Source: Odontesthes bonariensis
Taxonomy: Eukaryota > Chordata > Actinopteri > Atheriniformes > Atherinopsidae
DNA length: 64,000 bases
Reading direction: 5' to 3'
NCBI RefSeq assembly: GCF_027942865.1
Contig: NC_134527.1
Location: forward strand, 4,070,976 to 4,134,975
Positions 4,243 through 43,869 of the stretch are shown here, piece after piece; the first letter of the stretch is position 1, and every line of letters starts with the position of its first letter. A program made the position numbers and the translations under genes. The notes under the pieces are model-generated. The model did not search any database and was not told the origin of the DNA. It saw nothing but the letters and a program-made list of their open reading frames with translations.

Positions 4243-4297
4243 ATATATTCCACTTTTTACTTCATGGTGACCCGACATTCTCGTCGAGAATTAATAC
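4243..4297. repeat. Left 55-bp direct repeat flanking TRIM/BED island 1
   Basis: Matches 11297-11351 in direct orientation at 51 of 55 positions (atatattccactttttactt to gagaattaatac). The two copies immediately abut the outer ends of the BED-TRIM-BED-TRIM-BED block. It is far longer than a transposon target duplication, so it may mark a tandem duplication or unequal exchange. Confidence 0.7.
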
Positions 4298-4426
4298 TAG
4301 GGCTGTGCAACGATTAAAATTTTGAATCTAATCACATGATTTCCCTGATTAATCACGATTAATCGCATTTGTACGCAAAATCCAAAAATGAATCCAAAAG
4401 TAGTGTATAGCTTTTAGCATTTAGCT

Positions 4427-4732
4427 TTATTTTAAATGTGCTGCCATATGAATGAAAGTGCCATAACATTTGTTGTGCAAACACACTTTTAACATCAGCA
4501 TCTTTCTGTAGTTTTTATGTAGAAGCCTCGCTCCACTGTCTGTTTCCTTGAATGACTTGCTGCTATCAGTTGTGTGTTTTGCCTTTAAGTGATATTTTAG
4601 ACTGGAACTACTACGCTGAGAAGACAATTCAACTTGGCAGTGTTTACAGATGACTTTGGTTCTGTCGACTCCGCCGTCTGGAAGAACTTTAACATGAAAA
4701 TGGCCGAGTAAAAGTTCCGTACCCTTCTCCAT
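4427..4732 (-). pseudogene. BED zinc-finger fragment of an hAT-type transposase
   Basis: A 101-residue ORF with a BED finger: C29, C32, H48 and H53 (C-x2-C-x15-H-x4-H). This is the DNA-binding N-terminus of ZBED/hAT transposases, which are normally several hundred residues long. Nothing of the DDE/RNase H-like core or dimerisation region follows. Identical in sequence to the copy at 34680 and different from those at 7450 and 10710 at residue 14 only (V versus F). It is most likely a transposase remnant kept by recent duplication; a domesticated small DNA-binding protein cannot be excluded. Confidence 0.6.
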
Positions 4733-4849
4733 GTTTGGTGGATCCGCCGATTACTTTCTTTTCCTGTTCCACAGCAGACAGCAGCAGACTTTTACAAAAT
4801 AAAAGCCTGTGAGCAACAGACTTTTACAATAATAAAATAAATAATAAAA

Positions 4850-4995
4850 CAGCCCCATGTACAGAGGCTATAGTCCTCGCTGCAGCCGGTTCGAGTCCCG
4901 CATCGGACGGCCCTGTGCTGCATGTTGTTCCCCCTCTCTCTGCCCCCTGCTTCCTGTCTCTCTGAACTTTCCATTAAAGGCACAAAAGCCCCAAC
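4850..4995 (+). repeat. tRNA-derived SINE (5' truncated)
   Basis: Contains a polymerase III B-box-like ggttcgagtccc, then the shared SINE body (ccctctctctgccccctgct) ending near attaaaggcacaaaagcccc. The tRNA head with A box is missing here but is present, in reverse, at 29780-29953. Further partial copies occur at about 7945-8056 and 34490-34590 at the same place within the other BED elements, so the SINE predates the duplications. Confidence 0.7.
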
Positions 4996-5056
4996 AAAAA
5001 TGTTTCTTTTAAAAATGCGTTAATGTGTATCGGCGTTAAATAACTAGCGAGTTAAC

Positions 5057-5527
5057 AGCTGCATTGATTCACTGAAACATGGTCAAACATGAATATAAAC
5101 ACAGAATATGAGACAGAAACGGAGCTTTAAAGTGAATATTTGGCCTGAGCGCCTTTATTTCAAACACAGCCTGAAGAAATGAACAAAACCAAAGTCAGCG
5201 TAACTCCAGGATTATTTTCCCATTTCCACAGTGATGAGATGTGAAAAGAGTCTGTGATAAAGGAAGGTCTGCTGACTCCTCTGCTGGGCTCCATGAAGTG
5301 GAAGAGAAACAACAACATACAGACACACCGACACCAGGATCCCACTGATGTTTAGAGCTCAGAGAAGTTTAGATTTTAATATTTCTGTGAATCAAACTCC
5401 TCATCAGCAGTGATATCCTCCATGGCTGCACAGACACAGGAAACAGCAGCAAATAAACAGCAGAACAGCAGAGACATCAACGCAACCAGCTGTCAGCCAC
5501 AAGCTGACTAAACACATTTATTTCACT
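5057..5527 (-). other. TRIM copy 1 3' UTR/flank
   Basis: Conserved downstream block shared with the other TRIM copies. It has an AATAAA-type signal within about 10 bases of the stop and a second one near 5157. A 61-codon ORF (5160-5345) starting MGSWCRCVCM recurs in all three complete copies but overlaps this UTR and looks like conserved untranslated sequence. A strong splice-acceptor-like sequence precedes ccatggaggatatcactg, so an alternative 3' exon is possible. Confidence 0.5.
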
Positions 5528-7012
5528 TTACACAAACTCTGCTGAGGATCCAGGAGAAGAATAAAGCCAGATCCCAGCACAGAGCGGCTGAGTGAATGTG
5601 GTCTGCACTCTGTGGAGGAGAGTCATGGTTCCAGAGACGCTGTAGAAGGACAGAATACCTGCTCTGTGATCCAGGTACACTCCCACTCTGGAGGCCCGGG
5701 GACCTGAGATGGAGGTTTCCATGCTGTTGTACCTAAATGTATAACTGTTTGAGTAACACTCTAATGACCAAGATTTGTCATTAGATCCAAATCCACATTC
5801 AGTCCATCCTGCTCTGCTGATGTTCTTGTATGCGACTGCTACACCAACTCCTCTCCCTCTCCACTCCACCTCCCAGTAACAACGTCCAGTCAGACTCTCT
5901 CTGCTCAGGACCTGAGACCATCCAGTGAATCTGTCTGGATGATCAGAATAAGACTGATGTGGAAACATAAAGCTCACTTTTCTGTTCCCCTCTGACAGTA
6001 ACAGCCATGTGTGTGCTGTGTTTGGATCCAGTGTGATTTCACATGAATATCTTAAGAATCCAGCTCTGCTCGTTGGTTCTGGTTCTGACAGTAAAACATC
6101 CACTTCAGCGACTCTCAGTGAGATGTTGGCCCATTCCTCTCTCAGGATGTCCTGTAGTTTATCTCTGAGCTCTGACACAGCTGCTGTCACATCCTCAAAG
6201 TGCCTCAGAGGACGGATCTGGATGCTGGATGAGTGTGTAGCCCCCCTGAGTGCTGACACTGAGGGCCAGCTGTGCAGAAACTGGCTGTGATCCTCTGTGT
6301 GTGAGAGCTGCTGCAGCTCAGCATCTTTCCTCTTCAGCTCAGTGATCTCCTGCTCCAGCTTCTCCTGAAGCTCTTTGACTCGACTCCCTTCGGCTTCCTG
6401 CTGGGATCTGATCTGCTGCTTCACATCAGAGCTTCTTTTCTGGAGGAGACGGATCAGCTGGGTGAAGGTCTTCTGGCTGTGCTCCTCTGTTTTATCAGCA
6501 GAGCGATGGATGGCCTCCAGCTGCTGCTGAAGCAGCTTCACATCTTTCTCTGCGTCCTGGATTCTCTGCTGGATCTGCTGCCGACTCCCCTCCAGCTCTC
6601 TCTGCCTCTCAGTCCTTTCTGCTGCAGCTGACACTGTGTCGTGGCCTTTATGATCCTCCATTAAGCAGAGATAACAGATGCACTTCTGATCGGTACGGCA
6701 GAAAATCTTCATCACCTCACCGTGAACAGAGCAGATGTGATCAGCAGGAGCAGCTTGGAGTCCAGTCTTCTTCAGCTGCTCCACTAAAGCAGCTAACATG
6801 GTGTTTTTCCCCAGGACAGGCCTCGGTATGAAGGTTTTCCTGCACTGAGGGCAGCTGTGGATCCCCTTCTGATCCTCTCCATCCCAGTGGGCTTTAATAC
6901 AGCTCATGCAGTAGCTGTGTCCACAGGGAATAGCCACCGGATCCTTCAGCAGATCCAGGCAGATCGAACAGGAGAAGCTTTCTCGGTCCAGCTGAACTCC
7001 TTTCTGCGCCAT
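5528..7012 (-). CDS. TRIM-family E3 ubiquitin ligase (RING, B-box2, coiled coil, PRY-SPRY), copy 1 lacking B-box1
   Basis: An intronless 494-residue protein. The RING has C15, C18, C30, H32, C35, C38, C54 and C57. A B-box2 (CSVHGEVMKIFC to DHKGHD) follows almost directly, then a coiled coil of about 110 residues rich in Q/E/K/L and a C-terminal PRY-SPRY domain (LDPNTAH; RCYWEVEW). Compared with the 558-residue sister copy, 60 residues carrying B-box1 are removed cleanly in frame after APADH. RING TRIMs of this fish TRIM16/TRIM25-like group transfer ubiquitin (or related modifiers) to targets recognised by SPRY, mostly in innate immunity, in the cytoplasm. The start is set by the ATG after the conserved upstream block and matches all copies. 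Exact orthology to a named mammalian TRIM is not supported. It lies between BED elements and reads leftward. Confidence 0.9.
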   Translation of the reverse strand: MAQKGVQLDRESFSCSICLDLLKDPVAIPCGHSYCMSCIKAHWDGEDQKGIHSCPQCRKTFIPRPVLGKNTMLAALVEQLKKTGLQAAPADHICSVHGEVMKIFCRTDQKCICYLCLMEDHKGHDTVSAAAERTERQRELEGSRQQIQQRIQDAEKDVKLLQQQLEAIHRSADKTEEHSQKTFTQLIRLLQKRSSDVKQQIRSQQEAEGSRVKELQEKLEQEITELKRKDAELQQLSHTEDHSQFLHSWPSVSALRGATHSSSIQIRPLRHFEDVTAAVSELRDKLQDILREEWANISLRVAEVDVLLSEPEPTSRAGFLRYSCEITLDPNTAHTWLLLSEGNRKVSFMFPHQSYSDHPDRFTGWSQVLSRESLTGRCYWEVEWRGRGVGVAVAYKNISRAGWTECGFGSNDKSWSLECYSNSYTFRYNSMETSISGPRASRVGVYLDHRAGILSFYSVSGTMTLLHRVQTTFTQPLCAGIWLYSSPGSSAEFV

Positions 7013-7100
7013 TTCTCCTCTCAGATCAGCGACTCAGTGAGTTTCACTTCCTGAAAGCTGAAACTTATCTGAGCTCTGAGCTATAAATCACGTGTCTGTG
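7013..7100 (-). promoter_or_regulatory. TRIM copy 1 upstream block with TATA-like and Ets/IRF-like motifs
   Basis: On the minus strand, TTTATAGCTC lies about 75 bases before the ATG. GGAAGTGAAACT (plus-strand agtttcacttcc, 7040-7051) lies about 28 bases before it. GGAANNGAAA is the Ets-IRF composite consensus and also resembles an interferon-stimulated response element half. The block is conserved at the same spacing in all TRIM copies. Function is inferred. Confidence 0.45.
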
Positions 7101-7323
7101 CAGAGAACAGAGCCTATCAGCTCCCCTCCTGTTGGTTACACCCATCATGAGCTGCAGATCTGAAGGGGAGGAAACAACAAGTGAGTCGGAGCTGATTCAC
7201 AGCAGACTTCATGGTTAAAACACGGGTCGATTCTTCTTTTAATCCCTTTGGAAAGAAGCTTCACTTTCACAGTGAATGCAGCAGAGTTTTGAGCCTGAAA
7301 AATCAGGAAGAACATTTAGAAAC

Positions 7324-8113
7324 TAGGGCCGGGCAACGATTAAAACTTTTAATCTAATTAATCACATGATTTCCCTGATTAATCACGATTAATCGCATTT
7401 GTACGCAAAACTGAATCCAAAAGTAGCGTATAGCTTTTAGCATTTAGCTTTATTTTAAATGTGCTGCCATATGAATGAAAGTGCCATAACATTTGTTGTG
7501 CAAACACACTTTTAACATCAGCATCTTTCTGTAGTTTTTATGTAGAAGCCTCGCTCCACTGTCTGTTTCCTTGAATGACTTGCTGCTATCAGTTGTGTGT
7601 TTTGCCTTTAAGTGATATTTTAGACTGGAACTACTACGCTGAGAAGACAATTCAACTTGGCAGTGTTTACAGATGACTTTGGTTCTGTCGACTCCGCCGT
7701 CTGGAAGAACTTTAAAATGAAAATGGCCGAGTAAAAGTTCCGTACCCTTCTCCATGTTTGGTGGATCCGCCGATTACTTTCTTTTCCTGTTCCGCAGCAG
7801 ACAGCAGCAGACTTTTACAAAATAAAAGCCTGTGAGCAACAGACTTTTACAAAATAAAAGCCTGTGAGTAAAAGACTTTTACAAAATAAAAGCCTGTGAG
7901 CAACAGACTTTTACAAAATAAAAGCCTGTGAGCAACAGACTTTCAAGTCCCGCATCGGACGGCCCTGTGCTGCATGTTGTTCCCCCTCTCTCTGCCCCCT
8001 GCTTCCTGTCTCTCTGAACTTTCTTATCCATTAAAGGCACAAAAGCCCCAACAAAAATGTTTCTTTTAAAAATGCGTTAATGTGTATCGGTGTTAAATAA
8101 CTAGCGAGTTAAC
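7324..8113 (-). mobile_element. BED-finger hAT-like element, copy 2
   Basis: Starts tagggccgggcaacgatt directly after the TRIM copy 1 upstream region and ends gagttaac against TRIM copy 2 3' flank. It contains the BED fragment (7450-7755), about four tandem 32-bp units of the acttttacaaaataaaagcc type (7807-7945), and a 5'-truncated SINE. Orientation and order are the same as in copy 1, so it belongs to the same duplicated unit. Confidence 0.7.
7450..7755 (-). pseudogene. BED zinc-finger transposase fragment, copy 2
   Basis: The same 101-residue ORF as at 4427-4732, with F instead of V at residue 14. BED ligands C29, C32, H48 and H53 are intact. No transposase core follows. It is identical to the copy at 10710-11015. 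Confidence 0.6.
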
Positions 8114-8588
8114 AGCTGCATTGATTCACTGAAACATGTTCAAACATGAATATAAACACAGAATATGAGACAGAAACGGAGCTTTAAAGTGAATTTTTGG
8201 CCTGAGCGCCTTTATTCTCAAACACAGCCTGAAGAAATGAACAAAACCAAAGTCAGCGTAACTCCAGGATTATTTTCCCATTTCCACAGTGATGAGATCT
8301 GAAAAGAGTCTGTGATAAAGGAAGGTCTGCTGACTCCTCTGCTGGGCTCCATGAAGTGGAAGAGAAACAACAACATACAGACACACCGACACCAGGATCC
8401 CACTGATGTTTAGAGCTCAGAGAAGTTTAGATTTTAATATTTCTGTCAATCAAACTCCTCATCAGCAGTGATATCCTCCATGGCTGCACAGACACAGGAA
8501 ACAGCAGCAAATAAACAGCAGAACAGCAGCAGAGACATCCCAGCAACCAGCTGTCAGCAACAAGCTGACTAAATACATTTATTTCACT
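8114..8588 (-). other. TRIM copy 2 3' UTR/flank
   Basis: Near-identical to 5057-5527, including the two AATAAA-type signals and the 61-codon open frame at 8218-8403. No independent gene is supported here. Confidence 0.5.
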
Positions 8589-10265
8589 TTACACAAACTC
8601 TGCTGAGTCTCCAGGAGAAGAATAAAGCCAGATCCCAGCACAGAGCGGCTGAGTGAATGTGGTCTGCACTCTGTGGAGGAGAGTCATGGTTCCAGAGACG
8701 CTGTAGAAGGACAGAATACCTGCTCTGTGATCCAGGTACACTCCCACTCTGGAGGCCCGAGGACCTGAGATGGAGGTTTCCATGCTGTTGTACCTAAATG
8801 AATAACTGCCTGAGACACAATCTAATGACCAAGATTTGTCATTAAATCCAAATCCACATTCAGTCCATCCTGCTCTGCTGATGTTCTTGTATGCGACTGC
8901 TACACCAACTCCTCTCTCTCCCATCTCCACCTCCCAGTAACAACGTCCAGTCAGACTCTCTCTGCTCAGGACCTGCCACCATCCAGTGAATCTGTCTGGA
9001 TGATCAGAATAAGACTGATTTTGTTCCATTACTGTCACTTTTCTGTTCCCCTCTGACAGTAACAGCTCTCTGTGTGCTGTGTTTGGATCCAGTGTGATTT
9101 CACATGAATATCTTAAGAATCCAGCTCTGCTCGTTGGTTTTGGTTCTGGTTCTGGTTCTGACAGTAAAACATCCACTTCAGCGACTCTCAGTGAGATGTT
9201 GGTCCATTCCTCTCTCAGGATGTCCTGTAGTTTATCTCTGAGCTCTGACACAGCTGCTGTCACATCCTCAAAGTGCCTCAGAGGACGGATCTGGATGCTG
9301 GATGAGTGTGTAGCCCCCCTGAGTGCTGCCACTGAGGGGCAGCTGTGCAGAAACTGGCTGTGATCCTCTGTGTGTGAGAGCTGCTGCAGCTCAGCATCTT
9401 TCCTCTTCAGCTCAGTGATCTCCTGCTCCAGCTTCTCCTGAAGCTCTTTGACTCGACTCCCTTCGGCTTCCTGCTGGGATCTGATCTGCTGCTTCACATC
9501 AGAGCTTCTTTTCTGGAGGAGACGGATCAGCTGGGTGAAGGTCTTCTGGCTGTGCTCCTCTGTTTTATCAGCAGACTGATGGATGGCCTCCAGCTGCTGC
9601 TGAAGCAGCTTCACATCTTTCTCTGCGTCCTGGATTCTCTGCTGGATCTGCTGCCGACTCCCCTCCAGCTCTCTCTGCCTCTCAGTCCTTTCTGCTGCAG
9701 CTGACACTGTGTCGTGGCCTTTATGATCATCCATTAAGCAGAGATAACAGATGCACTTCTGATCGGTACGGCAGAAAATCTTCATCACCTCACCGTGATC
9801 AGAGCAGATGTTCTCCTGGAGCTTGTTGGAGGGCTCCACCAGCTTGTGTTTCCTGAGTGGAGCTGAATCATAATGAGGCTGAAGGTGTTCCTCACAGTAA
9901 GAGGCCAGGCAGGATAAACAGGACTTAACGGCTTTCAGCTTCCTCCCAGAGCAGACATCACAGGCCACATCTTCAGCTCCAGCATAGCAGTGATCAGCAG
10001 GAGCAGCACGGAGTCCAGTCTTCTTCAGCTGCTCCACTAAATCAGCTAGCATGGTGTTTTTCCCCAGGACAGGCCTCGGTATGAAGGTTTTCCTGCACTG
10101 AGGGCAGCTGTGGATCCCCCTCTGATCCTCTCCATCCCAGTGGGCTTTAATACAGCTCATGCAGTAGCTGTGTCCACAGGGAATAGTCACCGGATCCTTC
10201 AGCAGATCCAGGCAGATCGAACAGGAGAAACTTTCTCGGTCCAGCTGAACTCCTTTCTGCGCCAT
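8589..10265 (-). CDS. TRIM-family E3 ubiquitin ligase (RING, B-box1, B-box2, coiled coil, PRY-SPRY), copy 2
   Basis: An intronless 558-residue protein with the full domain set. RING is C15-C57 (C3HC4). B-box1 starts at C102/C105 (ACDVCSGRKLKAVKSCLSCL). B-box2 has C154, H157, C165, D168, C173, C176, H181 and H184. A coiled coil spans about 190-305, and PRY-SPRY about 365-558 with LDPNTAH and RCYWEVEMGERG. An EPEP repeat before the PRY is two units longer than in the other copies. This is the most complete member of the local set and fits the intronless teleost TRIM16/TRIM25-like expansion associated with antiviral ubiquitin signalling (family knowledge, not shown here). It is separated from TRIM copy 1 by BED copy 2 and transcribed in the same direction. 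Several SPRY variable-loop positions differ between copies while the RING is nearly invariant. Confidence 0.93.
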   Translation of the reverse strand: MAQKGVQLDRESFSCSICLDLLKDPVTIPCGHSYCMSCIKAHWDGEDQRGIHSCPQCRKTFIPRPVLGKNTMLADLVEQLKKTGLRAAPADHCYAGAEDVACDVCSGRKLKAVKSCLSCLASYCEEHLQPHYDSAPLRKHKLVEPSNKLQENICSDHGEVMKIFCRTDQKCICYLCLMDDHKGHDTVSAAAERTERQRELEGSRQQIQQRIQDAEKDVKLLQQQLEAIHQSADKTEEHSQKTFTQLIRLLQKRSSDVKQQIRSQQEAEGSRVKELQEKLEQEITELKRKDAELQQLSHTEDHSQFLHSCPSVAALRGATHSSSIQIRPLRHFEDVTAAVSELRDKLQDILREEWTNISLRVAEVDVLLSEPEPEPKPTSRAGFLRYSCEITLDPNTAHRELLLSEGNRKVTVMEQNQSYSDHPDRFTGWWQVLSRESLTGRCYWEVEMGERGVGVAVAYKNISRAGWTECGFGFNDKSWSLDCVSGSYSFRYNSMETSISGPRASRVGVYLDHRAGILSFYSVSGTMTLLHRVQTTFTQPLCAGIWLYSSPGDSAEFV

Positions 10266-10345
10266 TTCTCCTCTCAGATCAGCGACTCAGTGAGTTTCAC
10301 TTCCTGAAAGCTGAAACTTATCTGAGCTCTGAGCTATAAATCACG
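10266..10345 (-). promoter_or_regulatory. TRIM copy 2 upstream block with Ets/IRF-like motif
   Basis: The minus-strand GGAAGTGAAACT (plus agtttcacttcc, 10293-10304) and the TTTATAGCTC TATA-like box are at the same distance from the ATG as in copies 1 and 3. The spacing puts the Ets/IRF-like motif close to the expected transcription start. Confidence 0.45.
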
Positions 10346-10576
10346 TGTCTGTGCAGAGAACAGAACCGGTCGGTTCACATTCTGTTGGTTACGCCCATCA
10401 TGAGCTGCAGATCTGAAGGGGAGGGAACAACAAGTGAGTCGGAGCTGATTCACAGCAGACTTCATGGTTAAAACACGGGTCGATTCTTCTTTTAATCCCT
10501 TTGGAAAGAAGCTTCACTTTCACAGTAAATGCAGCAGAGTTTTGAGCCTGAAAAATCAGGAAGAACATTTAGAAAC

Positions 10577-11296
10577 TAGGGCCGGGCAACGATTAAAACT
10601 TTTAATCTAATTAATCACATGATTTCCCTGATTAATCACGATTAATCGCATTTGTACGCAGAATCCAAAAATGGATACAAAAGTAGTGTATAGCTTTTAG
10701 CATTTAGCTTTATTTTAAATGTGCTGCCATATGAATGAAAGTGCCATAACATTTGTTGTGCAAACACACTTTTAACATCAGCATCTTTCTGTAGTTTTTA
10801 TGTAGAAGCCTCGCTCCACTGTCTGTTTCCTTGAATGACTTGCTGCTATCAGTTGTGTGTTTTGCCTTTAAGTGATATTTTAGACTGGAACTACTACGCT
10901 GAGAAGACAATTCAACTTGGCAGTGTTTACAGATGACTTTGGTTCTGTCGACTCCGCCGTCTGGAAGAACTTTAAAATGAAAATGGCCGAGTAAAAGTTC
11001 CGTACCCTTCTCCATGTTTGGTGGATCCGCCGATTACTTTCTTTTCCTGTTCCACAGCAGACAGCAACAGACTTTTACAAAATAAAAGCCTGTGAGCAAC
11101 AGACTTTTACAAAATAAAAGCCTATGAGCAACAGACTTTTACAAAATAAAAGCCTGTGAGCAGCAGACTTTTACAAAATAAAAGCCTGTGAGCAACAAGC
11201 CCCAAAAAATAAATTAATTAAAAACCTGCGTTAATGTGCGATAAAATGTTCATCTGCGTTAAATAATTAACGAGTTAACGAGATAATAACACCCTA
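10577..11296 (-). mobile_element. BED-finger hAT-like element, copy 3 (both ends present)
   Basis: Begins tagggccgggcaacgatt and ends aataacaccctaa, so both tips carry the inverted TAGGG. This is the only copy that retains the terminal gttaacgagataataacacc segment. It contains the BED ORF (10710-11015) and about five 32-bp minisatellite units (11060-11195), but lacks the SINE. The absence of the SINE suggests it is closest to the ancestral element. Confidence 0.65.
10710..11015 (-). pseudogene. BED zinc-finger transposase fragment, copy 3
   Basis: A 101-residue BED finger ORF identical to the 7450 copy. It ends in a stop with no downstream transposase core. Confidence 0.6.
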
Positions 11297-27391: not shown

Positions 27392-27830
27392 TGTTGGAGC
27401 TATTTATTCCCATCTTTCTTTACTTTGAATTTTGTTTAAATTTATTCTTGGGTTACCTTATATTTTGGGGGGTTATTTACAGAATTTATTTGAAGATTAA
27501 TAATTGTTTGTTTTTTGTTTCTTTGTTTTAAGTTGGGCAGGATAACTGTGGGTCCAGTCCCTGTAAATATAGGGACTGGTATTGGACCAGCATAGATTGG
27601 GGTGGAGCTATGTTTTTTTTTTTTTTTTTACCAGAGTAGGAGAAGCAGCAGAGAACAAAGGAATGTTGTACCTGTATCATTTGCTTGCCAACTGGAAAAT
27701 AAACCTTCAAAACGCAGTTTCAGGTATTGGACATTGGACTTCTTTTCTTTGCCTGTGTACGAAACCCAACCCCAGTCCAGTAGTGGCACGTTTCAAAGGA
27801 TGTTTGATTTGACAAACATTTGCCACTACA
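27392..27830 (+). repeat. Left LTR of the Bel/Pao element
   Basis: Starts tgttggagctatttattccc and ends tttgccactaca. I count about five substitutions plus a poly-T length change against the right LTR over ~435 bases. Contains aataaacc near 27700 as a possible polyadenylation signal. Confidence 0.9.
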
Positions 27831-28045
27831 TAAAGTAAAAAACCTGGACCTGGACCACAAAGGAATAATCCCTCATCTATGGACCCGTTGGATGTATGGA
27901 CCCGTTGGATGTATGGATCTTAAGGATTACCTTCCGACAAAGCTATTGAGCCTCTTATGAAGAAATCAAACGACTTGGTGGGTCAGGCCTAGATCAACAC
28001 GTCACTCATTCATCAAAACTGGTATGTGGCAATATTGTGCAGCTG
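27831..28045 (+). other. Bel/Pao leader, left part
   Basis: Non-coding leader between left LTR and the nested block. It ends with tgcagctg (28038-28045), the left copy of the 8-bp target duplication. A primer-binding site should lie at its start, but I cannot assign the tRNA. Confidence 0.6.
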
Positions 28046-29341
28046 CAGGGGCGGCGCCAGAGATTTTTTACTGCCAGTGCTACGGGGGAGCACGGCTTTC
28101 TACCAAGGGTGCTTTTATTATCATTATTATTTATTGCTATTATTATTATTAGCCTACCTCCAACGCAAGACAGCCTACTATAAACACATTCACTCATACT
28201 TTGCATTTAAAATGCGTATAGGCTAAACTCAATACTTCACATGTTTCCATACACTGCACGGGCCTTTTTTTAAAAAACGGCAAATGTTTGAAAGTGATAC
28301 TCCGGAGTAGATTCACCCTGGGGTCATTTGAACCGTGACATCCAGCCAAGTAGCCCACCCGCAGTTTTTCTAATCTTGGCTGAACATCAGCCGAGTTACT
28401 GAGTTATCCCGAATAGCTTAGCACAAGCGCTAATGGAACCTGGCAGTATCTCCAAAATTACCACACTAAAATCACATGCCATGACACCAAACTTCTACAG
28501 TAGTACAAATATGGTCTGTACTCACCAAACGATGCATTTGGAAGTTTGTACATAGTCCAGGAGTTTATTATTATCATCAACACAAGCCTGATAGCTTCTC
28601 TGCAGCTAAAGCTGCGTCGAGGTCACTTCCTTGATCTGGGAGCTTCAAAGTAAGATGAGGGTTGATCTACTACTGTAGACAACAAAGCAAGGCTGCTCAA
28701 TTTCTCCATTGATAAAATAATTTCACAACTCTACAACATAAAAATTCATAAAAATTCACGTAGAATATAGCATATACTTTGTTGTCTACAGTAGTAGATC
28801 AACCCTCATCTTACTTTGAAGCTCCCAGATCCCAGAAGTGACGTCGACGCAGCTTTAGCAGCAGAGAAGCTATCAGGCTTGTGTTGATAATAATAATCTC
28901 CTGGACTATGTACAAACTTCCAAATGTATCGTTTTGTGAGTACAGACCATATTTGTACTACTGTAGAAGTTTGGTGTCATGGCATGTGATTTTAGTGTGG
29001 TAATTTTGGAGATACTGCCAGGGTCCATTAGCGCTTGTACCCTTAAGGCCGCATAAGGGATAAGAACTCCTGGGTGCTGTTGATGGTATATCCCTGCTCT
29101 TCTTCTGCCTGCAACTTGAAAATAAATTGGGTCAAAGCTTATGACAGAATCGTCATTGTTTTGTGTCTAAAACAATCTGTTCGTTGATAACTTTTTTTAT
29201 TTTCTGGCTGAAATATGTTACCGCACAATAAATAATAGAGAATATAATTTAATATTTGAAAATTGGATATTTTCTTGGGGGTGCTACAGGGGTGCTATGG
29301 CTAATCCAGGGGGAGCTATAGCGCCCCCAACGCCGCCCATG
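28046..29341 (+). mobile_element. hAT-like non-autonomous element, copy A, with internal palindrome
   Basis: Left tip caggggcggcgccag; right tip ends cgccgcccatg, with subterminal gtgctac/gctatag GC-rich motifs. Between about 28425 and 29040 two arms of roughly 290 bases form an inverted repeat around 28745. No ORF of note. The right end directly abuts the TRIM upstream block at 29342. Confidence 0.7.
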
Positions 29342-29404
29342 AGCTCAGATAAGTTTCAGCTTTCAGGAAGTGAAACTCACTGAGTCGCTGATCTGAGAGG
29401 AGAA
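29342..29404 (+). promoter_or_regulatory. TRIM upstream block of the truncated copy (TATA part replaced)
   Basis: Retains ggaagtgaaact at 29366-29377 before the ATG, but everything upstream of gctcagataag, including the TATA-like box, is replaced by the hAT-like element end. Confidence 0.5.
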
Positions 29405-29698
29405 ATGGCGCAGAAAGGAGTTCAGCTGGACCCAGAAAGCTTCTCCTGTTCGATCTGCCTGGATCTGCTGAAGGATCCGGTGGCTATTCCCTGTGGACAC
29501 AGCTACTGCATGAGCTGTATTAAAGGCCACTGGGATGGAGAGGATCAGAAGGGGATCCACAGCTGCCCTCAGTGCAGGAAAACCTTCATACCGAGGCCTG
29601 TCCTGGAGAAAAACACCATGTTAGCTGCTTTAGTGGAGCAGCTGAAGAAGACTGGACTCCGTTTCTGTCTCATATTCTGTGTTTATATTCATGTTTGA
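29405..29698 (+). pseudogene. TRIM copy truncated after the RING
   Basis: 97 codons: an intact RING (C15-C57) through KKTGL, then 11 unrelated residues from 3'-flank sequence. Compared with the copy at 32299, about 1.81 kb is missing between two ctccgt hexamers (32551-32556 and 34362-34367); the junction is at 29657-29662. B-boxes, coiled coil and SPRY are gone. It could still make a RING-only peptide, but I regard it as a deletion pseudogene. Confidence 0.85.
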
Positions 29699-29779
29699 AC
29701 ATGTTTCAGTGAATCAATGCAGCTGTTAACTCGCTAGTTATTTAACGCCGATACACATTAACGCATTTTTAAAAGAAAC

Positions 29780-29953
29780 ATTTTTGTTGGGGCTTTTGTG
29801 TCTTTAATGGATAAGAAAGTTCAGAGAGACAGGAAGCAGGGGGCAGAGAGAGGGGGAACAACATGCAGCACAGGGCCGTCCGAACCGGGGCCAGCTGCAC
29901 CGAGGACTATAGCCTCTTGTACATGTGGCGCCTGCTCAACCCACTACGCCACA
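29780..29953 (-). repeat. tRNA-derived SINE with A box
   Basis: Reverse-strand SINE. Its head reads tggcgtagtgggtt, a good polymerase III A box, near 29940-29951. The B-box region is altered (ggttcgg). The body matches 4850-4995. This is the only copy here with the tRNA-like head. Confidence 0.7.
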
Positions 29954-31765
29954 GACCCCCCCTGTTTTGGCCTATTGTATCTGCAGGATTTCACTATTAA
30001 TCCGATTCTTCCGCCGATTCTTACTTCTTTTCCGCACGGAATCGCAAATGGGGGGGCCTGAACGTATTCGAAAACTCGTATTCGAAAACTAAACATGATT
30101 TTAATGGAGTCGAAAGTGGGCGTGGCCAAACTGCTCTACAGCGCCACCTAACGTGAGATGGCCCGAACCGCACATCGTAGAGATCTGAAACTCGGTATGT
30201 ACGTAGATCGCCTCAAATCAAGAACAAAGGGCAAATTTTGGCCATTTTTCATATTTACACACCTCGTAGGAAAACTTTCACGCCCCAGGGATTTTGAACT
30301 ACAGACTTCATCTTTGGTCGGTAAGCAGTTAAGGGATGGGGGAACAAAAGTTATCCGAAATCTTGAGTGTTTGAGCATGTTTAGGGGGCTTGGCCAAGCG
30401 GCGAACTTGGCGTACTCGCCAGTGTAAACGAAACGCTATAACTTTCACGTAAAAAGTTTAATCTGCACCAAACTTGGTATGAGTCATCCATGTTGGATGC
30501 ATGACGGTCCTATGTCGTCATATGCTGACGTCATCTAAGCCCCGCCCCCTCCGAACAGGAAGTCACTTTTTTTTACTTGGAAGGCTCCATCTCTGGCCAC
30601 CTTCCCCTAATCAACATGATCTTGTGTCAGAATACAGATAACAAGTTGGTCTCACTTGCTTTAAAGCACCAACAGTTTCCAGTTGAAGGCGTGGCCGTAG
30701 TGACGAGGTCTGAGTATGCACGCCGTTACCATACATTTGAAAACAAAATTCTACAGTTTTGAGCCGAGATGCACCAAACTCCCTGGGATGGATCCTAATC
30801 CGCCCCCCAACAGGTGTGCAGTCGAATTTTTGATGGGAGTGGCCTAATGCGTCCACAGCGCCCCCTAGAACATCTAAAAAATATCAGCCCCAAGCCATGC
30901 TTTCACCGACAATCATGAAACTCAGCATACCTGTGCATTTTGTCAGGACCTACAAAAAAGTGTCTTGGAGCCCTGGTCCACACCCAACAGGAAGTCCGCC
31001 ATTTTGGACCAAAGTCGCCATTTTGTCTCTTAAACAGACGTTGTATTTGAGCTCCTCCTACAGCTTTTAACTTGGGGACTTCATACTCACTGAGCAGAGT
31101 CTTGAGGCATTGAAGAGCAAAAGTTATCAAAGGTTTTTGGTTACATCACAGTATGTGGGCGTGGCTAAGCTTCAAAGTCTGACCTTTCGCCATGAAACAT
31201 CATGATGGAATAACTTCCACATGCAAGGTCAAGGGTTGATGAAACTTTCTGTGTGTCTTAACAGACCAGCTGTAATCACATTCACATCGTCTTTGCTGAC
31301 GTCACTAAGCCCCGCCCCCTTTGAACAGGACATGAGCTGTGTTTTACATTACTCCTAAATTCATGCAGGTTTAAAGCTGTGTTTGATGACATTCAACAAC
31401 ATGATGCTGAATCCTTCTCTCGCTGCTGGCTGAAGCCTGTGGGCGTGGCAGAATGGCAAATTCCAATCCCTCGCCGTTTGCATACGTTCGTTTCTAAATC
31501 TCACATGCATCATCCGATTTGCACCAAACTAGATATGAATGACCTTTGTTAACCTCTAAAGAGCCCAATAGGATTATATTGGAGTGTGACTCCAGTGCGC
31601 CCCCTATATCATGTAAACAGCTATATCTCCTTGAGACATCATCCGATCTGCACCATATTTTTTGTGCATCATTACGGAGCAGCGCTTGACACGTTGGTGT
31701 GGTACATTTCTGACGTCACTAAACCCCGCCCCCACAAAACAGGAAGTGACGGTAACTCCTGTCTG
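29954..31765. repeat. Unclassified repeat region with recurrent GC-rich modules
   Basis: A module recurs three times in direct orientation, each with a gacgtca(c/t) then a ccccgccccc core and aacaggaagt or aacaggacat (about 30525-30565, 31297-31335 and 31711-31750). Other recurring phrases are gggcgtggc, gcgccccct and gcaccaaact. No ORF exceeds about 90 codons and no known domain was found. It may be a decayed non-autonomous element or a diverged tandem array. Confidence 0.5.
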
Positions 31766-31774
31766 GAAGGTGAG

Positions 31775-31955
31775 ATAATCGGCGGATCCACCAAACATGG
31801 AGAAGGGTACGGAACTTTTACTCGGCCATTTTCATTTTAAAGTTCTTCCAGACGGTGGAGTCGACAGAACCAAAGTCATCTGTAAACACTGCCAAGTTGA
31901 ATTGTCTTCTCAGCGTAGTAGTTCCAGTCTAAAATATCACTTAAATGTGCTCTAA
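31775..31955 (+). pseudogene. Truncated BED-finger fragment
   Basis: Matches the start of the 101-residue BED ORF (MEKGTELLLG; ATG at 31799) through the first zinc-finger histidine, then breaks and runs into the TRIM copy 3 upstream region. The BED element is therefore deleted from this point to its TAGGG tip. Confidence 0.7.
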
Positions 31956-32220
31956 ATGTTCTTCCTGATTTTTCAGGCTCAAAACTCTGCTGCATTCACT
32001 GTGAAAGTGAAGCTTCTTTCCAAAGGGATTAAAAGAAGAATCGACCCGTGTTTTAACCATGAAGTCTGCTGTGACTCAGCTCCGACTCACTTCCTGCTCA
32101 CACACAGCAGCTCCGCTCGGCCCACATGTTTCCTGGTTCCCTCCCCTTCAGATCTGCAGCTGATGATGGGTGTAACCAACAGAAAGTGAACCGACCGGCT
32201 CTGTTCTCTGCACAGACACG

Positions 32221-32298
32221 TGATTTATAGCTCAGAGCTCAGATAAGTTTCAGTTTTCAGGAAGTGAAACTCACTGAGTCGCTGATCTGAGAGGAGAA
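32221..32298 (+). promoter_or_regulatory. TRIM copy 3 upstream block with TATA-like and Ets/IRF-like motifs
   Basis: gatttatagctc at 32222-32233 is TATA-like; ggaagtgaaact at 32260-32271 fits GGAANNGAAA; the ATG is at 32299. The same spacing is seen upstream of the TRIM genes at 7012 and 10265. Confidence 0.45.
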
Positions 32299-33954
32299 AT
32301 GGCGCAGAAAGGAGTTCAGCTGGACCGAGAAAGCTTCTCCTGTTCGATCTGCCTGGATCTGCTGAAGGATCCGGTGGCTATTCCCTGTGGACACAGCTAC
32401 TGCATGAGCTGTATTAAAGCCCACTGGGATGGAGAGGATCAGAAGGGGATCCACAGCTGCCCTCAGTGCAGGAAAACCTTCATACCGAGGCCTGTCCTGG
32501 GGAAAAACACCATGCTAGCTGATTTAGTGGAGCAGCTGAAGAAGACTGGACTCCGTGCTGCTCCTGCTGATCACTGCTATGCTGGAGCTGAAGATGTGGC
32601 CTGTGATGTCTGCTCTGGGAGGAAGCTGAAAGCCGTTAAGTCCTGTTTATCCTGTCCGGCCTCTTACTGTGAGGAACACCTTCAGCCTCATTATGATTCA
32701 GCTCCACTCAGGAAACACAAGCTGGTGGAGCCCTCCAAGAAGCTCCAGGAGAACATCTGCTCTGTTCACGGTGAGGTGATGAAGATTTTCTGCCGTACCG
32801 ATCAGAAGTGCATCTGTTATCTCTGCTTAATGGATGATCATAAAGGCCACGACACAGTGTCAGCTGCAGCAGAAAGGACTGAGAGGCAGAGAGAGCTGGA
32901 GGGGAGTCGGCAGCAGATCCAGCAGAGAATCCAGGACGCAGAGAAAGATGTGAAGCTGCTTCAGCAGGAGCTGGAGGCCATCCATCAGTCTGCTGATAAA
33001 ACAGAGGAGCACAGCCAGAAGATCTTCAGCCAGCTGATCCGTCTCCTCCAGAAAAGAAGCTCTGATGTGAAGCAGCAGATCAGATCCCAGCAGGAAGCCG
33101 AAGGGAGTCGAGTCAAAGAGCTTCAGGAGAAGCTGGAGCAGGAGATCACTGAGCTGAAGAGGAAAGATGCTGAGCTGCAGCAGCTCTCACACACAGAGGA
33201 TCACAGCCAGTTTCTGCACAGCTGGCCCTCAGTGGCAGCACTCAGGGGGGCTACACACTCATCCAGCATCCAGATCCGTCCTCTGAGGCACTTTGAGGAT
33301 GTGACAGCAGCTGTGTCAGAGCTCAGAGATAAACTACAGGACATCCTGAGAGAGGAATGGGCCAACATCTCACTGAGAGTCGCTGAAGTGGATGTTTTAC
33401 TGTCAGAACCAGAACCAACGAGCAGAGCTGGATTCTTAAGATATTCATGTGAAATCACACTGGATCCAAACACAGCACACAGAGATCTGTTACTGTCAGA
33501 GGGGAACAGAAAAGTGACAAGAATGAAACAGCCTCAGTCTTATTCTGATCATCCAGACAGATTCACTGGATGGTGTCAGGTCCTGAGCAGAGAGAGTCTG
33601 ACTGGACGTTGTTACTGGGAGGTGGAGATGGGAGGGAGAGTTTATGTAGCAGTCGCATACAAGAACATCAGCAGAGCAGGAGGGAGAGAATGTGCATTTG
33701 GATTTAATGACAAATCTTGGTCATTAGATTGTGACCCAAACAGTTATACATTTTGGTACAACAGCATTGAAACCTCCATCTCAGGTCCTCGGGCCTCCAG
33801 AGTGGGAGTGTACCTGGATCACAGAGCAGGTACTCTGTCCTTCTACAGCGTCTCTGGAACCATGACTCTCCTCCACAGAGTGCAGACCACATTCACTCAG
33901 CCGCTCTGTGCTGGGATTGGGCTTTATTCTGGAGCCTCAGCAGAGTTTGTGTAA
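32299..33954 (+). CDS. TRIM-family E3 ubiquitin ligase (RING, B-box1, B-box2, coiled coil, PRY-SPRY), copy 3
   Basis: A 551-residue intronless ORF with the same domain order as the 558-residue copy: RING C15-C57, B-box1 from C102, B-box2 C154-H184, coiled coil to about 305 and PRY-SPRY to the end. It ends SGASAEFV, slightly shorter than the sisters. Substitutions relative to the other copies cluster in the SPRY (for example GGRVYVAVAYKN and DPNSYTFWYN), the part that recognises targets in TRIM proteins. AATAAA lies at 33960-33965 right after the stop and again at 34327-34332. The gene lies on the opposite strand from the two TRIMs of island 1, inside a hAT-bounded block within a Bel/Pao element. 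The reading frame is intact despite that setting, which points to recent duplication or retained function. Confidence 0.92.
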   Translation: MAQKGVQLDRESFSCSICLDLLKDPVAIPCGHSYCMSCIKAHWDGEDQKGIHSCPQCRKTFIPRPVLGKNTMLADLVEQLKKTGLRAAPADHCYAGAEDVACDVCSGRKLKAVKSCLSCPASYCEEHLQPHYDSAPLRKHKLVEPSKKLQENICSVHGEVMKIFCRTDQKCICYLCLMDDHKGHDTVSAAAERTERQRELEGSRQQIQQRIQDAEKDVKLLQQELEAIHQSADKTEEHSQKIFSQLIRLLQKRSSDVKQQIRSQQEAEGSRVKELQEKLEQEITELKRKDAELQQLSHTEDHSQFLHSWPSVAALRGATHSSSIQIRPLRHFEDVTAAVSELRDKLQDILREEWANISLRVAEVDVLLSEPEPTSRAGFLRYSCEITLDPNTAHRDLLLSEGNRKVTRMKQPQSYSDHPDRFTGWCQVLSRESLTGRCYWEVEMGGRVYVAVAYKNISRAGGRECAFGFNDKSWSLDCDPNSYTFWYNSIETSISGPRASRVGVYLDHRAGTLSFYSVSGTMTLLHRVQTTFTQPLCAGIGLYSGASAEFV

Positions 33955-34429
33955 AGTGAAATAAATGTGTTTAGTCAGCTGGTTGCTGACAGCTGGTTGC
34001 TGGGATGTCTCTGCTGCTGTTCTGCTGTTTATTTGCTGCTGTTTCCTGTGTCTGTGCAGCCATGGAGGATATCACTGCTGATGAGGAGTTTGATTCACAG
34101 AAATATTAAAATCTAAACTTCTCTGAGCTCTAAACATCAGTGGGATCCTGGTGTCGGTGTGTCTGTATGTTGTTGTTTCTCTTCCACTTCATGGAGCCCA
34201 GCAGAGGAGTCAGCAGACCTTCCTTTATCACAGACTCTTTTCAGATCTCATCACTGTGGAAATGGGAAAATAATCCTGGAGTTACGCTGACTTTGGTTTT
34301 GTTCATTTGTTCAGGCTGTGTTTGAGAATAAAGGCGCTCAGGCCAAATATTCACTTTAAAGCTCCGTTTCTGTCTCATATTCTGTGTTTATATTCATGTT
34401 TGACCATGTTTCAGTGAATCAATGCAGCT
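33955..34429 (+). other. TRIM copy 3 3' UTR/flank
   Basis: Same conserved 3' block as at 5057-5527 and 8114-8588, including the 61-codon open frame (34140-34325). The splice-acceptor-like tgtttcctgtgtctgtgcag ends near 34060. Confidence 0.5.
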
Positions 34430-35101
34430 GTTAACTCGCTAGTTATTTAACGCCGATACACATTAACGCATTTTTAAAAGAAACATATTTGTTGGGGCTT
34501 TTGTGCCTTTAATGGAAAGTTCAGAGAGACAGGAAGCAGGGGGCAGAGAGAGGGGGAACAACACGCAGCACAGGGCCTTCCGATGCAGGACTTGAAAGTC
34601 TGTTGCTCACAGGCTTTTATTTTGTAAAAGTCTGCTGCTGTGGAACAGGAAAAGAAAGTAATCGGCGGATCCACCAAACATGGAGAAGGGTACGGAACTT
34701 TTACTCGGCCATTTTCATGTTAAAGTTCTTCCAGACGGCGGAGTCGACAGAACCAAAGTCATCTGTAAACACTGCCAAGTTGAATTGTCTTCTCAGCGTA
34801 GTAGTTCCAGTCTAAAATATCACTTAAAGGCAAAACACACAACTGATAGCAGCAAGTCATTCAAGGAAACAGACAGTGGAGCGAGGCTTCTACATAAAAA
34901 CTACAGAAAGATGCTGATGTTAAAAGTGTGTTTGCACAACAAATGTTATGGCACTTTCATTCATATGGCAGCACATTTAAAATAAAGCTAAATGCTAAAA
35001 GTTATACACTACTTTTGGATTCATTTTTGCGTACAATTGCGATTAATCAGGGAAATCATGTGATTAATTAGATTAAAAGTTTTAATCGTTGCCCGGCCCT
35101 A
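34430..35101 (+). mobile_element. BED-finger hAT-like element, copy 4
   Basis: Mirror arrangement of copies 1 and 2: begins gttaactcgctag at the TRIM flank, holds a partial SINE, a single 32-bp minisatellite unit and the BED ORF, and ends gcccggcccta. Confidence 0.7.
34680..34985 (+). pseudogene. BED zinc-finger transposase fragment, copy 4
   Basis: 101 residues, identical to the 4427-4732 copy including V14. BED ligands intact; no transposase core. Confidence 0.6.
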
Positions 35102-35365
35102 GTTTCTAAATGTTCTTCCTGATTTTTCAGGCTCAAAACTCTGCTGCATTTACTGTGAAAGTGAAGCTTCTTTCCAAAGGGATTAAAAGAAGAATCGACC
35201 CGTGTTTTAACCATGAAGTCTACTGTGAATCAGCTCCGACTCAATTGTTGTTCCCTCCCCTTCATATCTGCAGCTCATGATGGGTGTAACCAACAGGAGG
35301 GGAGCTGATAGGCTCTGTTATCTGCACAGACACGTGATTTATAGCTCAGAGCTCAGATAAGTTTC
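35102..35365 (+). pseudogene. TRIM upstream-region relic without a gene
   Basis: Matches the segment upstream of the TRIM ATG (from ctaaatgttcttcctgattt to gctcagataagtttc) and then switches abruptly to hAT-like copy B before the Ets/IRF-like motif and ATG. It shows that another TRIM unit once followed, as in a tandem array. Confidence 0.75.
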
Positions 35366-36111
35366 TTATGCTGCTAAAGCTGCGTCAACGTCACTTCCTT
35401 GATCTGGGAGCTTCAAAGTAAGATGAGGGTTGATCTACTACTGTAGACAACAAAGCAAGGCTGCTCAATTTCTCCAGTGATAAAATAAATTCACAACTCT
35501 GCAACATAAAAAATCATGTAGAATATAGCATATACTTTGTTGTCTACAGTAGTAGATCAACCCTCATCTTACTTTGAAGCTCCCAGATCAAGGAAGTGAC
35601 GTCGACGCAGCTTTAGCTGCAGAGAAGCTATCAGGCTTGTGTTGATAATAATAAACTCCTGGACTATGTACAAACTTCCAAATGCATCGCTTTGTGAGTA
35701 CAGACCATATTTGTACTACTGTAGAAGTTAAGTGTCATGGCATGTGATTTTAATGTGGTAATTTTGGAGATACTGCCAGAGTCTGTTAGCGCTTGTACCC
35801 TTAAGGCCGCATAAGGGATAAGAACTCCTGGGTGCTGTTGATGGTATATCTCTGCTCTTCTTCTGCCTGCAACTTGAAAATAAATTTGGTCAAAGCTTAT
35901 GACAGAATCGTCATTGTTTTGTGTCTAAAACAATCTGTTCGTTGATAAATTTTTTTATTTTCTGGCTGAAATATGTTACCGCACAATAAATAATAGAGAA
36001 TATAATTTAATGTTTTAAAATGGGATATTTTCTTGGGGGTGCTACAGGGGTGCTATGGCTAATCCAGGGGGAGCTATAGCGCCCCCTAGCGCCCCCCTGG
36101 CTCCGCCCATG
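35366..36111 (+). mobile_element. hAT-like element, copy B (left-truncated)
   Basis: Begins inside the palindrome of copy A (gctgctaaagctgcgtc) and continues to the right tip ctccgcccatg. It is followed directly by tgcagctg, the right target duplicate. High similarity to 28600-29341. Confidence 0.7.
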
Positions 36112-36345
36112 TGCAGCTGTAAAGGAAAACGGTGAAACTATTGGAGTTTAAAGACATTATTTCACTGCAAAGACTGATGGGGTGAGTTTTGATGTGTCAA
36201 ATTGAATCTTAATTGGATCAAGACGTGTGCCGAAGCGCATCAGGAAATGTTTGTTCTCAAGAATCGACCTTCTGCTTTTTGCTGTGTGTTCTCAGTCGAT
36301 TGTGCAGTTTTGGAATGATTCAGACAATTCAAAAGATCGCTAAAG

Positions 36346-37950
36346 ATGTCCGATGTAAAGAGCAAACAAGATGAGGACACTCAGCTGTCACAAGAGAAAA
36401 GAAGCATCAAATTCACACCAAAAGGTTTGGGGCTTTATATGAAAACATGTCAAGAAAAGCGGAGTTTAATATGTAAACAAGCTTCAAAGTTCATGGAGAA
36501 AATATCCGCGTTAATGAAGACACAAGAAAATGTCAAGGAAGTGTCTTCTCACTTTGCCAAGTTTATTAATTGCACTCAAGATGCAACCGAGTTACATGAA
36601 TCCTTTTCGAGTTTGCCATTGCCAGAAGAGGAAGTGAAAAGACAATCATTGTATTTTCAGTCCAAGGTGACAGCATTTTCTGATTTTATGGACAATGCAA
36701 AGATTTGGTTGCAGAAAGCAGGCGATCCGTACACTGAACAGAAAACCAATGTTGATGATGATCAAGTTGATGCAGATCTGGATGAAATAAATCCTGAGGA
36801 CAGTGTCTCTAATATTTCCAGTGTAAAGCCACGTTCAAAAGCTTCTTCACAGCAGTCTCGGGCTTCATCCACCTCTTCTGCTCGCATTAGAGCTGCGGCC
36901 GAAAAGGCAGCGCTCATGGAGCGAGTCGCTGCAGAATAAAAAACATTTGATTGAAGCTCAAGAGGAAATACTGAGTAACAAAAAGGAAAAACTGAGAAAA
37001 GGAAAGGAAAAATTAGCCTTTGAAACAGAGTTGGCAGCAACTAATGCAAAACTTCATGTTTTACAAATAAAGTCAGTTAGCTGGTTCTAAACAATCTGAT
37101 GGCATGAACTCTTATTTTGAAAGAGGCCCAAAAAAGGACACGTTCCAGTTAAACCCCTGCGCTGATGCGTTTAGATCATTTATGAATGCCTTTGAAAATG
37201 GAGTGGAAGCTAAAACTGATAGCGGGAGCGACTGTTTGCACTTTTTAGAGCAGTTCACCAGGGGACAGCCTAAAGATTTGGTGCATAGTTGTCAGCACTT
37301 CCCTCCTGAGCAAGGTTATTCCACAGCCAAATATCTTCTCGAAGAACATTTTGGAAATGAAAACAAAATTGCTTCTGCATATATGGAGAATGAGTTGGGC
37401 ACCAATTAAAGGAGATGATGTGTTAAGTCTTCAGTCATTTTCTCTTTTTCAAAGATGTTCAAATCTAACACAAATTGTTGACATGAAAGAGTTGGATTTA
37501 CCCTCAAACATGAGAATGAATGATTGTTTTGAAACTTCCATACAAATTGAGGGAAAAATGGAGAGTTGAAGCTTATGAGCTGCAAGAGCAAAATGGTCAC
37601 AGAGCATTATTCACTGATCTGGTCGCCTTTATAACAAAACAAGTGAAAATAGCATCACATCCAGTGTTTGGTAACATTCAAGAGTCACAACGTGGGAGCA
37701 ACTCTAAAGTTTCAAGTTCCACCAAGCAAAGTAAAAAAGGAAGCAGTTTTGCCACTAATGTCAGCACAGTTGCGGGAGCCAATACTCAATTAGCTGAAAA
37801 CAAGACCAAATTCCCAGTTCAACAGAGCTGTTTGTTTTGTTTAAAAAGAAATCATTCATTGGAAAACTTTATGCAGTTCAAAGCTAAAATGCATCGGGAT
37901 AAGTTGACCTTCGTTAAGAGCAAGAGGGGATTTGTTTTGGTTGTCTGAAA
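36346..37950 (+). pseudogene. Bel/Pao gag remnant
   Basis: Gag-like frames at 36346-36939, 37104-37409 and 37520-37948 are separated by frameshifts and stops. The first is Lys/Glu-rich with predicted helices; the later ones contain a CLFCLKRNHS zinc-knuckle-like start. Follows about 230 bases of leader after the nested block. Confidence 0.75.
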
Positions 37951-43226: not shown

Positions 43227-43662
43227 TGTTGGAGCTATTTATTCCCATCTTTCTTTACTTTGAATTTTGTTTAAATTTATTCTTGGGTTACTTTATATTT
43301 TGGGGGGTTATTTACAGAATTTATTTGAAGATTAATAATTGTTTGTTTTTTGTTTCTTTGTTTTAAGTTGGGCAGGATAACTGTGGGTCCAGTCCCTGTA
43401 AATATAGGGACTGGTACTGGACCAGCATAGATTGGGGTGGAGCTATGTGTTTTTTTTTTTTACCAGAGTAGGAGAAGCAGCACAGAACAAAGGAATGTTG
43501 TACCTGTATCATTTGCTTGCCAACTGGAAAATAAACCTTCAAAACGCAGTTTCAGGTATTGGACATTGGACTTCTTTTCTTTGCCTGTGTACGAAACCCA
43601 ACCCCAGTCCAGTAGTGGCACGTTTCAAAGGATGTTTGATTTGACAAACAATTGCCACTACA
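43227..43662 (+). repeat. Right LTR of the Bel/Pao element
   Basis: 436 bases, tgttggagc to gccactaca, preceded by aggggccggag as polypurine tract. Confidence 0.9.
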
Positions 43663-43666
43663 GTCA

Positions 43667-43869
43667 AGGATGTCCAAAGTTGGTCCTCGACGGCCGCTGT
43701 CCTGCAGGTTTTAGATGTCGCTTCAACACACCCGATTCAGATCAAGACCTTAACAGGCTTGTGCAGAACTTAACAATCTGTTGAAGAGATCCATTTAATC
43801 TGAATCAGGTGTGTTGAAGCAACATCTAAAACCTGCAGGACAGCGGACCTTCAGGCTGAGGGTCCAAGC
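43667..43869. mobile_element. Palindromic MITE (tcctgcaggttttagatg family)
   Basis: Two inverted halves around 43770: tgtcctgcaggttttagatg and its complement near 43820. Related to the hAT MITE at 51455. It adjoins the right LTR target duplication. Confidence 0.55.

What the first reader, a model, noticed from the sequence alone, without database searches (positions are those of the whole stretch)
28046..36111. TRIM gene inside an 8-kb block with hAT-type ends and a perfect 8-bp target duplication, nested in a Bel/Pao leader
The outer ends of hAT-like copies A and B are an inverted pair (caggggcggcgccag and catgggcggagccag inward). They are flanked by identical tgcagctg on both sides, the duplication size of hAT elements, and the retrotransposon leader resumes cleanly outside. 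Everything between, including an intact 551-codon TRIM gene, is therefore framed like a single transposed unit. hAT transposases acting on two neighbouring element ends could move an immune gene. The alternative is a single hAT insertion later expanded by recombination with a TRIM array that also contained this element.
Basis: partly seen in the sequence, partly recalled or inferred. Interest (0 to 1): 0.85.

Follow-up and report, generated by a model that had tools for sequence, protein, structure and literature searches.

The report
Jumping-gene pair carrying a TRIM gene
In this fish-like genome an 8-kb piece of DNA with one intact immune-type (TRIM) gene sits inside a retrotransposon exactly as if the outer ends of two neighbouring hAT jumping genes had carried it there together, a way of moving genes that is described from maize.

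Summary
The block (28046-36111) starts with the intact left end of hAT copy A, ends with the intact right end of copy B, and is flanked by a perfect TGCAGCTG duplication. Four other copies of the host leader that I read are uninterrupted there; one carries exactly one TGCAGCTG. None of seven other leader copies found continues into a hAT. Of nine solo copies of this hAT family with both ends, seven have perfect 8-bp duplications. Between A and B lie two head-to-tail TRIM units, opening at promoter site P (AGCTCAGA) and closing 16 bp into the same motif. The family's left end sits at P in another TRIM array 0.7 Mb away. A and B share two variants absent from 10 of 10 other right ends; one marker 29-mer occurs only in A and B. 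Yet they differ more than the LTRs do. So A and B probably sat in a TRIM array first and their outer ends moved the block (macrotransposition, 0.6); recombination with a solo hAT is the main rival. No second block and no donor array were found.

The parts
27392..27830 (+). 5' LTR of the host Bel/Pao-type element
   Evidence: pairs with 43227-43662; 5 differences in 425 aligned sites
43227..43662 (+). 3' LTR of the host Bel/Pao-type element
28038..28045 (+). left copy of the target duplication TGCAGCTG
   Evidence: present once in the uninterrupted C6 copy
28046..29341 (+). hAT copy A, non-autonomous, full length; left end intact, right terminal repeat with a private 12-bp deletion; contains the palindromic repeat 28291-29040
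28291..29040 (.). palindromic very-high-copy repeat nested in hAT A (its right arm is shorter than in free copies)
29342..29357 (+). TRIM promoter site P as it follows A: AGCTCAGATAAGTTTC; its first 8 bases are the duplication found left of the hAT at C27:3386385
29342..32234 (+). TRIM unit u1: promoter and exon start, gene body deleted at ~29657-29662, ~1.9-kb insert 29890-31775
   Evidence: only the window itself spans the deletion junction
32299..33954 (+). intact TRIM gene of unit u2, 551 codons: RING, B-box, coiled coil, PRY/SPRY
35350..35368 (+). TRIM|B junction: site P read through to P+16 (AGCTCAGATAAGTTTC, 35350-35365), then 3 bases TTA
   Evidence: only the window itself spans it
35369..36111 (+). 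hAT copy B, left part missing, right end intact
36112..36119 (+). right copy of the target duplication TGCAGCTG
4296..11235 (-). neighbouring TRIM array (open frames 8589-10286 = n2, 5528-7033 = n1) without this hAT; nearest or joint-nearest genomic relative of parts of the block

Best explanation
A hAT element of a small non-autonomous family inserted long ago at site P in the promoter of a TRIM unit on this chromosome (duplication AGCTCAGA). Duplication of TRIM units multiplied it, so two related copies in direct orientation came to bracket two TRIM units. The inner ends decayed: A lost 12 bp of its right terminal repeat, B lost its whole left part (probably by failed gap repair that copied 16 bp of an empty promoter and then end-joined with TTA). 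The only intact pair of ends was then A-left with B-right. A hAT transposase used that pair, moved the 8,066-bp stretch as one macrotransposon, and put it into the leader of a Bel/Pao copy, making the TGCAGCTG duplication. Shown: outer ends, duplication, empty site, a hAT at P elsewhere, A-B kinship. Inferred: the order of events, the A/B arrangement in a donor array, the repair event behind B, and that the whole block moved in one step.
For: Perfect 8-bp duplication and uninterrupted homologous leaders, 4 of 4 read; 7 other leader copies stop exactly at 28045 and none continues into hAT, 28 of 28 first-look candidates scored; 8-bp duplications in solo copies: of 9 with both ends, 7 perfect, one 7/8, one none; hAT left end at TRIM site P with AGCTCAGA at C27:3386385, matching A's right flank; A and B share G at 29223 and 29323 where 10 of 10 other right ends have A, FastTree support 0.91; the G-form 29-mer occurs exactly in A and B only, while 8 of those 10 copies carry the exact A-form 29-mer; A-B difference 29/731 against LTR 5/428, Fisher p 0.006, or 0.03 with clustered changes collapsed, so A and B were probably apart before this Bel/Pao copy landed; the TRIM DNA is a whole number of units starting and ending at P.
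Against: No donor array with two hAT copies, no second block and no other TRIM-hAT right junction were found. In the palindromic part A and B share no exclusive variants, and a tree of that part does not join them; their kinship rests on two sites, of which only one was counted genome-wide. Most of the A-B excess over the LTRs lies in the palindrome (20/430), where arms may convert each other; in the right part alone it is 9/301 (12/301 in the alignment, including mismatches beside the deletion). LTR conversion could also make the host look young. A's left end is no closer to the hAT at site P than to others. One assembly only.
Confidence: 0.6

Rival explanations
1. A solo hAT first inserted in the Bel/Pao leader. 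Later a circle (or gap-repair copy) of two TRIM units carrying a decayed hAT at P recombined with it by homology, splitting it into A (left Bel-derived, right TRIM-derived) and B (left TRIM-derived, right Bel-derived).
For: The TRIM content is what a two-unit circle opened at P would give; a single decayed TRIM hAT would account for both inner junctions; duplications with changed block order put down to circular DNA are described in human (PMC7450558, abstract and outline), and circular hAT forms that reintegrate in insects (PMC2803484, abstract and outline); the hAT at C27:3386385 has lost its right half at the palindrome, so breaks there happen; the palindromic parts of A and B do not group together.
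Against: It needs more steps; no solo hAT in any of 7 other leader copies; the exclusive A-B right-end variants then require the Bel hAT to have come from the same TRIM hAT lineage.
Confidence: 0.25
2. Alternative transposition during replication made a Composite Insertion as in maize: A with its downstream TRIM flank and B's right part were re-replicated and joined at the TRIM|B junction by end joining.
For: Maize Composite Insertions have transposon termini with 8-bp duplications around two donor segments joined by end joining or by homology (PMC4270019, passages); the TTA join fits.
Against: It leaves unexplained why the join falls 16 bp from P, where A's own junction is.
Confidence: 0.07
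3. One hAT insertion in Bel/Pao that grew later in place, B being a copy of A.
For: A and B share exclusive variants.
Against: A-B divergence exceeds LTR divergence (with the caveats given); A's right flank is the TRIM site P that carries a hAT elsewhere.
Confidence: 0.05
4. Assembly error joining repeats.
For: Both inner junctions are unique in the assembly and lie in repeats.
Against: No N in the window; a chance misjoin would hardly leave a perfect duplication against an empty site with A and B carrying private shared variants. Reads could not be examined.
Confidence: 0.03

Closest known systems
Ac/Ds macrotransposons and alternative transposition in maize (PMC4270019 and PMC3744419, passages read; Huang and Dooner 2008 seen only as cited there, not held)
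   Same: termini of two linked hAT elements act together, 8-bp duplication at the new site, intervening host DNA carried or duplicated
   Different: here a natural event in an animal genome, non-autonomous elements with decayed inner ends, cargo is an intact TRIM gene, target is a retrotransposon leader
Segmental duplication through circular DNA (PMC7450558, abstract and outline read)
   Same: changed order of duplicated blocks, as a circle opened elsewhere would give
   Different: [quoted passage not shown] here there are transposon ends and a target duplication
Teratorn, a piggyBac-herpesvirus composite in medaka (PMC10175614, part of the abstract and a reference passage seen)
   Same: large cargo joined to a DNA transposon in a teleost
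   Different: piggyBac and a virus, not hAT ends and a host TRIM gene

Membership tests
hAT transposon, non-autonomous | 8-bp target duplication | tested here: met
   of 9 solo copies with both ends 7 are 8/8, one 7/8, one none; block 8/8
hAT transposon, non-autonomous | short inverted terminal repeats CAGGGGCGG.../...CCGCCCATG | tested here: met
   that CAGGGGCGG ends are hAT-like is recalled, not from a call
hAT transposon, non-autonomous | mobilised by a hAT transposase with the same ends | not tested
   no search for an autonomous partner was sent
hAT macrotransposon | two linked elements whose outer ends form a proper inverted pair | tested here: met
hAT macrotransposon | outer ends flanked by one target duplication at a site empty elsewhere | tested here: met
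hAT macrotransposon | same block, or its donor, known at another site | tested here: not met
   no other TRIM|B or A|TRIM junction; only the left half of a hAT at P in one array
hAT macrotransposon | excision or presence/absence among individuals | not testable with these tools
   one assembly
Composite Insertion by re-replication | two donor-flank segments joined inside the insertion | tested here: inconclusive
   TTA join at 35366-35368; its position is better explained otherwise
Bel/Pao LTR element (host) | LTR pair and Pao-type domains | tested here: met
   LTRs; Peptidase_A17 5e-07 in one short frame and DUF5641 4e-16, both above cut-off; DUF1758 1.6e-4, 21.8 bits against a cut-off of 22
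Bel/Pao LTR element (host) | reverse transcriptase domain | tested here: not met
   no match in the 11 separate frames of the host tried (3, 8); the frames are broken, so this says little
TRIM gene | RING, B-box, coiled coil, PRY/SPRY in one open frame | tested here: met
finTRIM subfamily | placement in a fish TRIM tree | not tested
   the label would be recalled only

The most novel reading that the evidence does not exclude
The block is a natural vertebrate macrotransposon that carries a complete immune-type gene and still has intact outer ends, so that TRIM genes in this lineage are dispersed by paired hAT ends and the block is polymorphic or mobile today.
Probability: 0.3. Interest if true: 0.75.

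Novelty: new variant of a known kind. Interest (0 to 1): 0.58.

Why it matters
TRIM families expand fast in fish, mostly told as tandem duplication (recalled). A base-precise case in which paired hAT ends relocate a whole intact TRIM gene would give a second route, and its traces (outer duplication, damaged inner ends, the same promoter site P) can be searched for in any long-read fish genome.

Tried and rejected
The palindromic part of A and B was tried for kinship: no A-B-exclusive site, and A falls with free copies of the repeat. The 10-bp length difference there looks like a tandem unit and was given no weight. The first 68-76 bp of 19 left ends, A included, did not tie A to the hAT at site P. 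About 220 kb read around the window held no further hAT left or right end of this family, only one free palindromic repeat, a 74% TRIM relative and pieces of a dispersed repeat. Seven library searches returned lists; six of them bore on hAT blocks, TRIM genes or macrotransposition, and no listed title or abstract start that I saw describes a hAT block carrying a TRIM gene; that is a reading of listings only. (circular DNA) served the rival. The searches for the right-hand leader (36100-36350), for the second marker (29323) and for the A-form 29-mer did not complete; four leaders were read instead, and exact forms were counted in fetched copies.

Rows dropped: of 19 loci examined, seven (L032, L041, L042, L043, L045, L046, L050) gave no right part in the stretch fetched and two (L048, L049) only a 61-base match without a right end; the other 10 are the right ends compared, one of which (L035) gave no left end. 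Of 20 other left ends, flanks of 18 were read. The 23/720 figure collapses clustered changes and drops mismatches beside the 12-bp deletion, by hand. The Fisher test used 5/428 for the LTRs, entered by hand; one search counts 5/425.

Full report
What is there. A Bel/Pao-type element with 439- and 436-bp LTRs (27392-27830, 43227-43662; 5 differences in 425 sites) is interrupted in its leader by an 8,066-bp block, 28046-36111, flanked by TGCAGCTG on both sides. The host label rests on Pao-type domains in short frames; no reverse transcriptase was matched in the frames tried.

The ends. A (28046-29341) is a full-length non-autonomous hAT; B (35369-36111) lacks the left ~555 bp. Genome search gave 20 other left ends of this family; I read the flanks of 18. 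Nine of the loci read hold both ends: seven have perfect 8-bp duplications, one 7/8, one none. Ends and duplication size are therefore established here, not assumed. A's right terminal repeat has a 12-bp deletion that none of 10 other right ends shows.

The empty site. Seven other copies of the leader match up to exactly base 28045 and stop; none continues into hAT (28 of 28 first-look candidates scored). I read four, 161 bases each: all run through the site. One (C6) has a single TGCAGCTG, three have TGCAAGCTG; one of the three (C29) leaves the alignment about 50 bases further on. The duplication is thus a true target duplication.

The cargo. 29342-35365 is two head-to-tail TRIM units. It starts at promoter site P (AGCTCAGATAAG...) and ends 16 bp into the same motif, so it is a whole number of units. 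Unit u1 lost most of its gene and holds a ~1.9-kb insert; only the window itself spans its deletion junction (40 of 1107 candidates scored). Unit u2 holds an intact 551-codon gene with RING, B-box, coiled coil and PRY/SPRY. The minus-strand array at 4296-11235 of the same window is among its nearest relatives: the 166 bases before B are 97% identical to n1 against 93% or less over that length elsewhere, though shorter matches of 116 bases reach 97% at four other C27 places; u1's 3' part is 99% identical to the DNA behind n2 against 97% or less elsewhere; for u1's promoter and exon start n1 ties at 99% with C27:3368899. Unit u2 differs from n2 at 49 of 2349 sites and from n1 at 58 of 2165.

hAT at site P elsewhere. 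At C27:3386385, in another TRIM array 0.7 Mb away, the left end of the same hAT family sits exactly at P...TATAGCTCAG|AGCTCAGA|CAGGGGCGG. That is the missing other side of A's right junction, CCCATG|AGCTCAGATAAG. It is 1 of the 18 left ends whose flanks I read. This copy has only the left part; it runs into a palindromic repeat that is complete on its right side, and then into DNA without match to the block. I infer one old insertion at P that was copied with TRIM units. Neither inner junction of the block is spanned anywhere else (40 of 390 candidates scored, 40 of 199); the lists are capped, but a spanning copy should have outscored the rows shown.

Kinship and age of A and B. In the right ~300 bp A and B share G at 29223 and 29323 where 10 of 10 other copies have A. 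A 29-mer with the first of these occurs in the whole genome only in A and B, while the other form is exact in 8 of the 10. The second marker could not be counted genome-wide. In the palindromic part they share nothing exclusive and do not group. They differ at 29 of 731 sites against 5 of 428 between the LTRs (p 0.006; 0.03 with clusters collapsed); most of the excess lies in the palindrome (20 of 430), the right part has 9 of 301. So they are related but probably parted before this Bel/Pao copy landed. The TRIM units differ by about 1-8% by region, which fits A and B having been duplicated with them.

Mechanism. The simplest history is: insertion at P, duplication with TRIM units, decay of the inner ends, and use of the outer pair A-left and B-right by a hAT transposase. 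B's left junction (TRIM contiguous through P to P+16, then TTA, then the palindrome) cannot come from the insertion at P by a simple deletion; I read it as failed gap repair from an empty promoter. Recombination of a TRIM circle with a solo hAT gives the same picture with more steps; it needs the solo hAT to be of the same private lineage, and no such allele was seen. I give 0.6 to macrotransposition and 0.25 to recombination.

Against known systems. Maize Ac/Ds shows that ends of two linked hAT elements can act together and that large host segments are carried or copied between 8-bp duplications (passages of PMC3744419, and PMC4270019). What differs is the animal setting, the intact TRIM cargo, and decayed inner ends that leave only the outer pair. 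I found no donor and no second block, so this is a strong single case, not yet a system.

Noticed in passing
28291-29040 and L003-L008: A palindromic repeat of roughly 880 bp in free copies, nested in the hAT, is itself extremely abundant (2624 first-look candidates, 40 scored); the hAT at site P in L032 seems to have been broken inside it.
   Followed up: partly
4296-11235 (-): Second TRIM array; gene pairs u2-n2, u2-n1 and n1-n2 give dN above dS (0.026/0.012, 0.036/0.020, 0.032/0.018; small counts), a hint of diversifying selection.
   Followed up: partly
L032 4028-4840: An ~810-bp insertion in a TRIM promoter, flanked by a 17-bp duplication, next to the hAT at site P.
   Followed up: no
27387-27391 and 43663-43667: GTCAC / GTCAA beside the two LTRs, 4 of 5 bases alike: likely target duplication of the Bel/Pao copy.
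   Followed up: no
29657-29662: u1's gene deletion joins exon to 3' region at about 6 shared bases; only the window spans it.
   Followed up: partly
22533-23315 (+): Open frame with a reverse transcriptase domain (RVT_1, 6e-24), outside the block.
   Followed up: no
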